From Syntrophorhabdaceae bacterium (GTDB lineage: Bacteria > Desulfobacterota > Syntrophorhabdia > Syntrophorhabdales > Syntrophorhabdaceae): a stretch of 64,000 nt of DNA. Each line of letters begins with the position of its first letter. Within the stretch, counting starts at the first letter, position 1. The stretch covers positions 1 to 64,000 of the forward strand of contig DATKMQ010000055.1 in the NCBI GenBank assembly GCA_035541755.1, read 5' to 3'. Under the pieces are notes generated by a model. The model was not told the DNA's origin, made no database searches, and saw only the letters and a list, made by a program, of their open reading frames with translations. Below, one piece after another: positions 18,681 through 25,711 of this stretch. Position numbers and translations under genes: made by a program.

Positions 18681-18747
18681 AATATCGTTTTCTTTTGACT
18701 TTTCATGACAAATAGCTTAAAAGAAAAAAAATTCACGAGGGATGATG

Positions 18748-19839
18748 ATGCGGGAAATTCGTGTTGCTGTGACAGGCATCGGTAACTGTGCAAGTTCGCT
18801 CATTCAAGGGCTTCACTATTACGCAGGCAGACAGAAGGAAATGATAGGCCTCATGCACTACGATATCTGTGGGTACAAACCGGCGGATATCAGAATCGTC
18901 GCTGCCTTCGACGTGGACAAGAGAAAAGTCGGAAAACCCCTTGAACAGGCAATCTTTTCTTCACCCAATTGCACAAAAACCATCACGAAAGATATCCCGC
19001 GGTCAAACGTGACGGTATCGATGGGGCACGTTCTTGACGGTGTCTCGCCTCACATGAAAGAGTATCCTCCGGAACGTACCTTCATCGTTTCTAAAGATAG
19101 TCCCTGCGACGTGGTAAAAACGCTTAAGGAGAGACAGGTTGAGATTCTTATTAATTATCTGCCTGTGGGCTCTGAAAAAGCGGCCCGGTATTACGCCCAG
19201 TGTTGTCTCGAAAGCGGCGTTAGCTTCGTAAACTGCATCCCCGTATTTATCGCATCGGACAAGGAATGGGCAAACAAATTCAAGCAGAAGAAGATTCCTG
19301 TTATCGGTGATGACGTGAAGTCTCAGATTGGTGCCACAATTATTCACAGGACCCTTACAAAGCTGTTCAGCGACAGAGGCGTCACCATCGACAGGACATA
19401 TCAGTTGAATACCGGTGGGAACACAGATTTTCTCAATATGCTGAACAGAGATCGTCTCGTTTCCAAAAAGATTTCCAAGACTGAGGCCGTCCAATCGATG
19501 CTCGACATGCCCCTGCTTCCCGAGAATATTCATATCGGCCCCTCAGACTACGTGCCATGGCAAAAGGACAATAAAGTCTGCTTCATGCGTCTGGAGGGCA
19601 GAATTTTCGGCGATATACCGATCGATCTTGAGCTACGACTCTCCGTAGAAGATTCCCCTAACAGCGCCGGATGTATGATTGACGCCATCAGATGCTGCAA
19701 GGTTGCTCGCGACAGACGCGTAGGCGGCGTTCTTGAATCAATATCCGCTTATACCATGAAACATCCTATCCATCAGTACCCTGACGAGATTGCCCGCACC
19801 ATGGTGGAGCAGTTCATACGAGGCGAGAGAGAAAGATAG
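18748..19839 (+). CDS. Inositol-3-phosphate synthase
   Basis: Myo-inositol-1(3)-phosphate synthase family, 363 aa, turning glucose 6-phosphate into inositol 3-phosphate with bound NAD. The NAD motif VAVTGIGNCASSLIQGL is at the N-terminus, with IGDDVKSQIGATIIHR (about 190) and NTGGNTDFLNM (about 222) as the family signatures. Three ATG codons in a row (18742, 18745, 18748) follow GAGGG; the third gives the best spacing. A CDP-alcohol phosphatidyltransferase follows, so the product probably goes into an inositol phospholipid, uncommon outside Actinobacteria and archaea. Confidence 0.92.
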   Translation: MREIRVAVTGIGNCASSLIQGLHYYAGRQKEMIGLMHYDICGYKPADIRIVAAFDVDKRKVGKPLEQAIFSSPNCTKTITKDIPRSNVTVSMGHVLDGVSPHMKEYPPERTFIVSKDSPCDVVKTLKERQVEILINYLPVGSEKAARYYAQCCLESGVSFVNCIPVFIASDKEWANKFKQKKIPVIGDDVKSQIGATIIHRTLTKLFSDRGVTIDRTYQLNTGGNTDFLNMLNRDRLVSKKISKTEAVQSMLDMPLLPENIHIGPSDYVPWQKDNKVCFMRLEGRIFGDIPIDLELRLSVEDSPNSAGCMIDAIRCCKVARDRRVGGVLESISAYTMKHPIHQYPDEIARTMVEQFIRGERER

Positions 19840-19999
19840 ACCCGTTTTGGGACCCTCGATATTAAGAGTAGCTGGCAGGATGATGCTTTCTCGCGGGTGA
19901 GTCTGTTCATGAACGATTCGATGTGCGAATAAACCGGAGCGACGACCCTATCATTAAGCAAATTCAAGGAGCGTGAAGGTATGTGCGTGCGAACCCTTT
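19840..19999 (+). other. Intergenic leader between inositol-phosphate synthase and the phosphatidyltransferase
   Basis: No gene seen. Palindromic snippets occur (GTTCATGAAC near 19906, then the CTCATTCATGAG units of the repeat). The 315-base gap to the next gene is long for two genes likely to act in one pathway and is mostly made of repeat. Confidence 0.4.
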
Positions 20000-20165
20000 A
20001 GCTCATTCATGAGCGAGAAGGGGTGGCCGGGTACCCGCTTGCGGGTGTAGCTTCGCTGATGGAGGGGGCGACGTGAGCCCCAGGACGTAGATAGACAGCT
20101 CATTCATGAGCGAGAAGGGGTGGCTCCGACAGCTTCGCTGATGGAGGGGGCGACGTGAGCCCCAG
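20000..20165 (+). repeat. Two-copy direct repeat carrying the ribosome site and start codon
   Basis: Two copies, at 20000-20083 and 20097-20165. Each has the 27-base block AGCTCATTCATGAGCGAG... and the 35-base block AGCTTCGCTGATGGAGG... ending in GTGAGCCCCAG. Copy 1 holds an extra 15 bases between them with the hairpin ACCCGC-TT-GCGGGT. Both copies have GGAGGGG and GTG. In copy 1 the GTG opens only a 5-codon frame (20073-20090); in copy 2 it starts the real gene. Confidence 0.85.
20147..20163 (+). promoter_or_regulatory. Hairpin that hides the ribosome site, start codon in its loop
   Basis: GGGGC (20147-20151) pairs with GCCCC (20159-20163) around the loop GACGTGA. The stem takes up most of the Shine-Dalgarno GGAGGGG and the loop holds the GTG start at 20155, so translation may depend on melting of this stem. 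The same hairpin is present in the upstream repeat copy. Confidence 0.5.
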
Positions 20166-20763
20166 AAGAAGGTATTGCCTGATAAGCTTGAAACTCAATC
20201 ATTCTCTTGATCCGCTTATTCTTAAGGTCTACCGTTTTGTCCTGAGGGACAGGAAGGTCAATCCCAATACCCTCACCGTCTGGGGCACGGTTCTTGGATT
20301 TGCTTCATCAATCTGCATCGCTTGCGGATGGTTCTTGTCCGGCGCTCTGCTGCTTCTTATGTCGGGGTTCTTTGATCTGCTCGATGGGGCGCTCGCTCGC
20401 GACACCGATAGCGTCACCAGTTTCGGAGGCTTTCTCGATTCAGTGCTCGACCGCTATACCGATCTCGCTGTGATGGGCGGGATATTCGTGTTCTTTGTCT
20501 TGCACGGTTCCGTGCGCTACTCCGTTGTGACATTCGTGGCAACCATCGGTACCGCCGTCATACCCTACGCGAGGGCAAGGGCAGAAGCGGCTTCTATTCG
20601 ATGCAGGTCAGGTCTGTTGGAGAGACCGGAGCGGGTTATACTCCTACTCGTAGGCCTTTTTTTGCCGCCATTGTTGCCCTCCGTGATTCTGGTTCTGGCT
20701 GTTTTGACTCACGTGACGGTCATTCAACGCATAGTTCATGTGAGAAGAGCGGTCGGCAGATAA
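20155..20763 (+). CDS. CDP-alcohol phosphatidyltransferase (probable phosphatidylinositol-phosphate synthase type)
   Basis: Membrane enzyme of 202 aa with about 5-6 hydrophobic segments. It has the full CDP-alcohol phosphotransferase signature D-G-x2-A-R-x8-G-x3-D-x3-D in DGALARDTDSVTSFGGFLDS followed by VLDRYTD (about residues 77-103). Substrate is inferred from the neighbour: with inositol 3-phosphate synthase upstream, CDP-diacylglycerol plus inositol phosphate to phosphatidylinositol phosphate is most likely; glycerol phosphate remains possible. The GTG start is preceded by GGAGGGG inside a hairpin and lies in the second copy of a repeat. Confidence 0.85.
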   Translation: MSPRRRYCLISLKLNHSLDPLILKVYRFVLRDRKVNPNTLTVWGTVLGFASSICIACGWFLSGALLLLMSGFFDLLDGALARDTDSVTSFGGFLDSVLDRYTDLAVMGGIFVFFVLHGSVRYSVVTFVATIGTAVIPYARARAEAASIRCRSGLLERPERVILLLVGLFLPPLLPSVILVLAVLTHVTVIQRIVHVRRAVGR

Positions 20764-23728: not shown

Positions 23729-25711
23729 CTACATGTTGACCCTGATGGGCAAAATTACTGTTGCAATGCCGTCCCATTGGAGCCGCCGCTGAATGGCGTA
23801 AGCGGTCTCGTTGTGCAGGACCTTTTGGAACGGGGTCTCATGCTTGAATACGAGTTTTCCGGTGAACACGGTGGAACGGGGAAACTCATTGACCGTGGCT
23901 TCCACGAGTTCTGTTACACTGTCGACAACGTCAGTCGCGATGTTTGTCCGGTAGTCAGCAGGAAAGCCGTGGGAACGGGTTATTTTCACGTATTTCATTA
24001 GCCCTTTCTTTGCCGATTCCCTGAGGGCCTCCATCTCGGCAATCCCCTTAAATGATCCTGAATCTACCTCTGCCACGGAAACAAAGATAAAGTTCTTATA
24101 CACGTTTGGAAAATTCTTAACGATCGAAAGAAGTGTATGAAGTCCGAAGCCGTTAAAGCCGCCCACGAGAAGAACCGCCGTCATTTCTTTCGGGTCCACA
24201 GGCTCATTGTTGAAGGGGGCCGTTGCCGGTATGTCGGAGAGCGTCTCTTCGAGTTGACGCACGCTGCTTCTGACCTTTCGATAGTGGCTTCGAATGAGAT
24301 AGCACAGGCCTACCACCAGAGAAGTGATAAAAAGGGTGACCCAGCCTCCTTCGGTAAACTTCTCATAGACCGTTACCATGAGAATTGTGACGCAGAGACC
24401 GAGACCTATGATATGGATTACGATGTGCTGTTTCCATTTCAGGTCCAGTTGCCTGTTTTTGAGATAAAAGCGAACCATGCCGAATTGTGAAAGGGAGAAG
24501 GTGAGAAAAACGTTGATCGAATACATAACCACAAGGGCAGATACCGACCCTCGTGTATAGACAAGCAGGCAGATTGCAGCCGTACCCATGAGGAGTACCC
24601 CGTTCTGCATGGAAAGCCTCTCCGAGAGCGCGGCAAACCGTCTCGGAAACCATGAATCAATCGCCATATTTGACATGACCCGAGGACCGTCAATAAAACC
24701 GGCCTGGGCGCCAACAACGAGGAGGGCGCCTTCCGAGAGAATCGTAATCAGAGCGAGATAATACCCCAGAGGCCACCTTCCAAAGATACTATCGGCGAGA
24801 ACGGCATTGAGAGTTCTGCCTTCGATCGGTTGTATTCTGAAGAGGAAATAACAGAACAAGAGGCCGCCGGCCGTGATGGCAAGGGAGGTTGCCATATACA
24901 GCATCGTGCGTTTCCCCGTATGGACTTTGGGCTCGCGCATGATCTGCATGCCGTTGGATACGGCCTCAAGACCTGTGTATGTGCCGCCGCCGAGAGAAAA
25001 GGCGCGCAGAAACAACGATAGCACCCCGATGAACCCTATGGCCGAGAGGTCATAGCGAAATGAGCCTTTGAGCTCGCTGACAAGCGGCCTGACCTGGTCC
25101 GTGTGGGTGATTATGCCATGTCCGATCAAGATAGCGTGTGTCAGCACGAATACCATGAAGATGGGGGCAAGCATTGTAACCGATTCCTTGACCCCTCGGA
25201 GATTGAGCACCACGAGGAGAAAGATGAGGAAGACGACGAAGAATATTTTATACTGCTGGTACGAGAGGGGTAGAAAACTGAAGAGTGCGTCACCGCAGGA
25301 GACGAGCGACACCGTGATTGTCAGCATATAGTCGACGAGCAAGGCACATCCCGATATGACGCCGGCATTTTCGCTTATCGTGTGGGTCGCAACGATGTAG
25401 CCGCCACCCCCGTGAGGGAAATGTTCGATGATCCGGGAGTAGGCATAGGATATGATAATAACAGTGAACGCCGTGGCGAGTCCCAGAAAGAGGGCGAGAT
25501 AGGTATGCCTCCCCAGGGCCCTGAACGCTTCCTCGGGGCCATAGGAAGATGAGGAAAGTCCATCGGCCCCAAGCCCTATCCATGCCAGAATAGGAATGAG
25601 GGACAATTTGTGAAATATGGAAGGTTCGTTGACGTCACGGGGCGCACCGATAATCTTTCTCTTTAGCCTTTCGAGTATTCTCTGTTCGTTTTCCGGAGCG
25701 GCCGGTTCCAT
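23729..25711 (-). CDS. APC-superfamily permease with long cytoplasmic C-terminus
   Basis: Transporter of 660 aa. About 12 membrane helices cover residues 35-470; the first is followed by GADGLSSSSYGPEEAFRALG and FPHGGGGYIVATHTISENAG, features of the APC amino-acid/cation permease superfamily. Residues about 490-660 form a soluble domain (TAVLLVGGFNGFGLHTLLSI) resembling a nucleotide- or universal-stress-like fold. Substrate unknown; the arrangement is like large permeases often annotated as amino acid or potassium carriers. Monocistronic and convergent to the kinase/BON gene. Confidence 0.8.
   Translation of the reverse strand: MEPAAPENEQRILERLKRKIIGAPRDVNEPSIFHKLSLIPILAWIGLGADGLSSSSYGPEEAFRALGRHTYLALFLGLATAFTVIIISYAYSRIIEHFPHGGGGYIVATHTISENAGVISGCALLVDYMLTITVSLVSCGDALFSFLPLSYQQYKIFFVVFLIFLLVVLNLRGVKESVTMLAPIFMVFVLTHAILIGHGIITHTDQVRPLVSELKGSFRYDLSAIGFIGVLSLFLRAFSLGGGTYTGLEAVSNGMQIMREPKVHTGKRTMLYMATSLAITAGGLLFCYFLFRIQPIEGRTLNAVLADSIFGRWPLGYYLALITILSEGALLVVGAQAGFIDGPRVMSNMAIDSWFPRRFAALSERLSMQNGVLLMGTAAICLLVYTRGSVSALVVMYSINVFLTFSLSQFGMVRFYLKNRQLDLKWKQHIVIHIIGLGLCVTILMVTVYEKFTEGGWVTLFITSLVVGLCYLIRSHYRKVRSSVRQLEETLSDIPATAPFNNEPVDPKEMTAVLLVGGFNGFGLHTLLSIVKNFPNVYKNFIFVSVAEVDSGSFKGIAEMEALRESAKKGLMKYVKITRSHGFPADYRTNIATDVVDSVTELVEATVNEFPRSTVFTGKLVFKHETPFQKVLHNETAYAIQRRLQWDGIATVILPIRVNM

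What the first reader, a model, noticed from the sequence alone, without database searches (positions are those of the whole stretch)
20000..20165. Duplicated ribosome site and start codon with a hairpin hiding the start
The 5-prime region of the phosphatidyltransferase gene is present twice. Each copy has GGAGGGG and GTG within a 5-bp GGGGC/GCCCC hairpin whose loop contains the start codon. In copy 1 translation would stop after five codons (GTG 20073 to TAG 20088), giving a tiny upstream frame. Copy 1 also has an extra ACCCGC-TT-GCGGGT hairpin. Looks like RNA-level control by structure or by reinitiation.
Basis: partly seen in the sequence, partly recalled or inferred. Interest (0 to 1): 0.7.

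Follow-up and report, generated by a model that had tools for sequence, protein, structure and literature searches.

The report
Dispersed three-hairpin repeat, two tandem copies
The doubled sequence before the phosphatidyltransferase gene is two side-by-side copies of an undescribed, roughly 80-base hairpin repeat that has spread to dozens of places in this bacterium and its relatives, usually lying in the direction of transcription just before a gene's ribosome site, so it is not a control device made for this one gene.

Summary
In detail: 35-nt and 28-nt blocks occur twice at 20000-20165 with the hairpins described. It is not a local duplication of a gene leader. Each copy is one unit of a dispersed repeat: hairpin P1, linker GAGAgGGGGaGGC, hairpin P2, hairpin P3 (GGGGC/GCCCC), then AGTAATAG. 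I found 30 units at 19 sites in this genome, and more in most genera of the order Syntrophorhabdales; none in Rfam, phage or plasmid records. The ino1-pgsA gap lacks the insert in at least 11 relatives, including the congener, and among congeners other sites are filled, empty or expanded into tandem arrays. The start codon in the P3 loop is not conserved (30 of 74 units) and rarely opens into the next gene (4 of 38). The other refuting condition fails: stems P1 and P2 vary with compensation. Between co-directional genes the repeat runs with transcription 55:14 and usually ends 10-35 nt before the start codon, suggesting a role or constraint in mRNA. Best reading: a mobile, transcript-oriented structured repeat, comparable to REP/BOX elements but meeting neither REP tag definition. 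The mobilising enzyme is unknown.

The parts
19995..20085 (+). Repeat unit 1 (variant with the 5' arm of P2 replaced by another hairpin)
   Evidence: Covariance model match, E 3.3e-7 in own genome; sequence
20092..20167 (+). Repeat unit 2 (canonical P1-P2-P3 form)
   Evidence: Covariance model match, E 1.1e-14 in own genome
20001..20014 (+). P1 of unit 1, GCTC-ATTCAT-GAGC
   Evidence: Sequence; P1 covaries across units
20033..20046 (+). Hairpin ACCCGC-TT-GCGGGT that replaces the 5' arm of P2 in unit 1; the same module occurs in other copies
   Evidence: Sequence; other copies
20065..20081 (+). P3 of unit 1, GGGGC-GACGTGA-GCCCC
   Evidence: Sequence
20098..20111 (+). P1 of unit 2, GCTC-ATTCAT-GAGC
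   Evidence: Sequence
20124..20146 (+). P2 of unit 2, CTCC-GACAGC-TTC-GCTGAT-GGAG
   Evidence: Sequence; P2 covaries across units
20147..20163 (+). P3 of unit 2, GGGGC-GACGTGA-GCCCC, loop holding GTG 20155
   Evidence: Sequence; stem invariant in the 25-unit alignment
18742..19839 (+). ino1, myo-inositol-1-phosphate synthase, upstream neighbour
   Evidence: ORF, PF01658
20155..20763 (+). CDP-alcohol phosphatidyltransferase gene; the codon aligned with the relatives' start is CTG 20179, while GTG 20155 lies in the repeat
   Evidence: ORF, PF01066, comparison with relatives

Best explanation
The two copies are two head-to-tail units of a dispersed, mobile, structured repeat of about 80 nt, almost confined to the order Syntrophorhabdales. 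Shown: it occurs at 19 sites in this genome; it is inserted here relative to the congener and other relatives; sites are polymorphic between congeners; units multiply in tandem; stems P1 and P2 vary with compensation; and it lies mainly between co-directional genes in the sense orientation with its 3' end just before the next ribosome site. Inferred: it spreads by an enzyme supplied in trans, is transcribed as part of operon mRNAs, and is kept or tolerated in sense orientation because the three-hairpin fold separates the cistrons or protects mRNA ends without blocking the next start. At this locus the likely effect is to uncouple ino1 and pgsA translation, since a native gap of about 5-20 nt has become about 340 nt.
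For: Many copies in own genome and relatives. Insert absent from this gap in relatives. Empty, filled and tandem states at the same gaps in one genus, one copy with a ~20-bp flanking direct repeat. Compensatory change: 29 two-sided cells against 10.4 in shuffles. Orientation 55:14 between co-directional genes, p 7e-7, 3' end mostly 10-35 nt before the start codon.
Against: No mobilising enzyme found. Folding energy against shuffles does not separate sense from antisense. Gene calls were simple ORF calls, and not all sites are independent. Some 14 co-directional sites are antisense and 35 lie between convergent or divergent genes, so sense orientation is not essential. No transcript or expression data.
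Confidence: 0.75

Rival explanations
1. A local duplication of the pgsA leader that controls pgsA: the P3 hairpin hides the start codon, and the five-codon frame in copy 1 couples by reinitiation.
For: GTG 20155 is in frame with pgsA and has GGAGG at good spacing; the codon at the relatives' start position is the weak CTG.
Against: Same unit at 19 sites before or after unrelated genes; start codon in the P3 loop in only 30 of 74 units and rarely in frame (4 of 38); gap lacks it in relatives.
Confidence: 0.07
2. A cis-regulatory RNA class (riboswitch or protein-bound leader) whose many copies form one regulon, rather than a repeat that merely tolerates being transcribed.
For: Conserved linker and P3 across genera, compensatory stems, sense placement before ribosome sites, orthologous copy before flgA in two genera.
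Against: Neighbour genes are unrelated; copies also at 3' ends of convergent genes and in frame inside an ammonium transporter gene; tandem arrays and rapid gain and loss between congeners; no Rfam match.
Confidence: 0.2
3. A REP-type element moved by a Y1 (RAYT) transposase acting on the folded single strand.
For: Short, palindromic, dispersed, with TAGC next to a hairpin; Y1 genes in many of these genomes, rank correlation with copy candidates 0.47.
Against: No GTAG tag (base before TAG is most often T, 38%); three hairpins in about 80 nt; own RAYT-like gene not flanked by it; copy-rich G004 and G037 without a detected Y1 gene.
Confidence: 0.15

Closest known systems
REP/BIME elements and RAYT enzymes (PMC8266576, PMC3733652)
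   Same: Short hairpin-forming repeats, dispersed and mostly intergenic, many copies, tandem groups, likely mobile
   Different: About 80 nt with three hairpins instead of 20-50 nt with one; no GTAG tag; head-to-tail groups; strong sense orientation; no flanked RAYT gene found
CGTC-tagged repeats, including Rickettsia palindromic elements (PMC3733652)
   Same: Palindromic repeats that can lie inside genes and lack a dedicated transposase, as two units do here in frame in an ammonium transporter gene
   Different: No unpaired CGTC at the end; nearly all copies are intergenic and run with transcription
BOX elements of Streptococcus pneumoniae (own knowledge, not tested here)
   Same: Modular intergenic repeats with hairpin subunits that are swapped or multiplied
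   Different: No sequence comparison was made; different phylum and module layout
TAACTGA direct repeats of Beggiatoaceae (PMC4679880)
   Same: Many copies placed just before start codons of unrelated genes, proposed as post-transcriptional sites
   Different: Those are 7-nt direct repeats without this fold

Membership tests
GTAG-type REP | Palindrome of about 20-50 nt preceded by conserved unpaired GTAG | tested here: not met
   Consensus NTAGC with T commonest before TAG (38%); three hairpins over about 80 nt
GTAG-type REP | Association with a RAYT gene flanked by the repeat | tested here: not met
   Own Y1 gene (L137:1424-2368) has no copy in 3.5 kb; G004 and G037 have no Y1 gene detected. 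RAYTs in other genomes were not checked for flanking copies
CGTC-type repeat | Unpaired CGTC at one end of the palindrome | tested here: not met
   Ends are TTTAGC and AGTAATAG; CGTC appears only on the antisense strand of the P3 loop
Known Rfam family | Match above the family's gathering score | tested here: not met
   no relevant match
Cis-regulatory RNA (riboswitch or protein-bound leader) | Conserved fold supported by compensatory change | tested here: met
   (P1 and P2; P3 invariant and uninformative)
Cis-regulatory RNA (riboswitch or protein-bound leader) | Consistent association with functionally related genes | tested here: not met
   Neighbours are unrelated; few shared contexts between genomes
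Cis-regulatory RNA (riboswitch or protein-bound leader) | Ligand or protein binding that changes expression of the downstream gene | not testable with these tools
   Needs binding and expression experiments
Mobile repeat | Presence/absence at orthologous sites among close relatives | tested here: met

The most novel reading that the evidence does not exclude
A mobile RNA element that works as a post-transcriptional module throughout an order of bacteria: the P1-P2-P3 fold with its conserved GAGAgGGGGaGGC linker is read in the mRNA by a common factor (ribosome, RNase or RNA-binding protein), so that each insertion places another operon under that factor.
Probability: 0.2. Interest if true: 0.75.

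Novelty: new variant of a known kind. Interest (0 to 1): 0.45.

Why it matters
It is an apparently undescribed repeat family (no Rfam match, and none noticed in the papers searched) that marks dozens of operons in a little-studied order of syntrophic bacteria. The mix of clear mobility, compensatory change and strong sense orientation makes a concrete test case for whether short bacterial repeats are kept for work in mRNA. It also warns annotators: gene starts near such repeats, including this pgsA, may be miscalled.

Tried and rejected
Rfam search of the locus and of the other copies: no family. Exact core pattern in viral contigs and distant search in phage and plasmid records: no match. IS200-like genes as mobiliser: only a weak correlation, contradicted by copy-rich genomes without them. 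Reverse transcriptases: no pattern; many copy-rich genomes have none. Sense versus antisense folding energy as proof of RNA function: sense is lower in 72 of 72 but z-scores are equal, so composition explains it. G-U against A-C counts in stems (81 against 6): suggestive, but made on an alignment fitted to the sense model, so not used as proof. P3 loop as a general start codon: rejected. An earlier count said the gap is empty in all 16 genomes; that was too broad, because both flanks were matched or read in only 11 of them.

Full report
What is in the window. Between ino1 (myo-inositol-1-phosphate synthase, PF01658) and a CDP-alcohol phosphatidyltransferase gene (pgsA-like, PF01066) there are two identical 28-nt blocks and two identical 35-nt blocks.

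It is a dispersed repeat. The 181-bp stretch matches 26 places on many contigs of the same genome. Aligned copies show one unit: TTTAGC, hairpin P1, GAGAgGGGGaGGC, hairpin P2 (CTCC...GGAG), hairpin P3 (GGGGC...GCCCC), AGTAATAG. A covariance model built from 25 units finds 27 units in the genome, and 30 at 19 sites in the stretches searched again. In some units, including unit 1 here, the 5' arm of P2 is replaced by a CGGGTACCCGCTTGCGGGTG hairpin, and a few P3 loops carry inserted hairpins, so the unit is modular.

Range. Half of 60 relatives carry it, with cores often 88-97% identical across genera and into a second family of the order; none of the other families of the phylum sampled did. In 297 genomes spread over the phylum only Syntrophorhabdaceae and one genome of another family (one copy, before etfB) have it. 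The nearest named relatives by Ino1 are Syntrophorhabdaceae MAGs. Rfam, viral contigs, phage and plasmid collections gave nothing.

Mobility. In relatives pgsA starts about 5-20 nt after the ino1 stop. This was read directly in the named MAGs L028-L031 and in L280, L281, L282, L284, L288, L290, L292 and L293. In one search the matches flanking the gap are also much closer together than in the window: 169 against 502 nt between anchors in congener G001, and about 10 nt in G029 and G018. The window has 340 nt. Together the empty state is shown for 11 of the 16 genomes; in the others one flank was not matched. About 150 nt of the window's insert (19840-19994) is not part of the two units and is unexplained.

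Within one genus of seven species, the livM-livG gap is empty in G018 and filled in G009, G023, G029 and G031; the G009 copy is flanked by a ~20-bp direct repeat. Another gap is empty in G023, has one unit in G018, G029 and G009, and a tandem array of 77-bp period in G027. A few sites are shared between genera, such as flgG-flgA in G003 and G020, so some copies are old. The enzyme is unknown: the single IS200-like gene here is not flanked by the repeat, copy-rich G004 and G037 have none detected, although numbers correlate weakly, and reverse transcriptases show no pattern.

Structure. On 25 aligned units, 90.5% of stem cells pair, 29 cells have changes on both sides against 10.4 in shuffles, and slid versions pair at 40-54%. 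P1 and P2 carry this signal; P3 never varies there and so says nothing. The P1 figures are lowered by one-base misalignment of loops. Folding energy relative to shuffles does not tell sense from antisense.

Place and direction. With simple ORF calls, and stops placed in the repeat so that no frame ran through it, 55 sites lie in the sense direction between co-directional genes and 14 in the opposite direction (binomial p 7e-7; 19 convergent, 16 divergent). An earlier count with fewer sites gave 37 against 8. In most of the 55 the unit ends about 10-35 nt before the start codon. Two units lie in frame inside an ammonium transporter gene, after its signal peptide (family).

The start-codon idea. 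The P3 loop holds GTG, ATG or TTG in 30 of 74 units. Of 38 GTG loops facing downstream, 4 open into 80 aa or more, and two of those genes have their own ATG just after. The window's GTG 20155 is in frame with pgsA, and the codon aligned with the relatives' start is CTG 20179, so use of the repeat's GTG at this one locus is possible but unproven.

Conclusion. The finding is a mobile, structured, transcript-oriented repeat, close in kind to REP/BIME or BOX elements but not meeting the tag definitions of GTAG or CGTC REPs (PMC8266576, PMC3733652). That it is a repeat inserted here is well supported; an mRNA role is a reasonable inference from covariation and orientation; a common binding factor is speculation. 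Numbers of sites are not all independent, since some may be shared by descent.

Noticed in passing
L009/L148 (own genome C158, about 24901-25054): Two repeat units lie in frame in an ammonium transporter gene between the signal peptide and the mature part, adding a repeated stretch (AAREGKAGYPLAGGASLPEGATRVPV and AAREGKAPTASLPEGATRVPV); the frame stays open.
   Followed up: partly
window 20155-20181: The pgsA codon at the position where relatives start with TTG or GTG is CTG (20179); the annotated-looking start GTG 20155 lies inside the repeat.
   Followed up: partly
window 19840-19994: About 150 nt of the ino1-pgsA gap is neither the two repeat units nor present in relatives; its origin is unexplained.
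   Followed up: no
L137:1424-2368 (own genome C96): The genome's single IS200-like gene is RAYT-like, with a C-terminal stretch resembling the DnaA helix-turn-helix (below Pfam's cut-off), and has no repeat copy within the 3.5 kb read.
   Followed up: partly
L013, L019, L126, L247: Several copies lie in tandem duplications or between direct repeats of flanking sequence, about 20 to 150 bp long.
   Followed up: partly
L230-L249 (genus g9 genomes): Many copies there are preceded by a second repeated sequence such as TATAGGTCTTATATGACCTATTGGACCTATA, or lie inside another repeat with TTTGCTAT...ATAGCAAG.
   Followed up: no
L165 and L166 (flgG-flgA gap, genomes G020 and G003): In these two low-copy genomes of different genera a unit sits at the same place before flgA, which suggests an old or retained copy.
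   Followed up: partly
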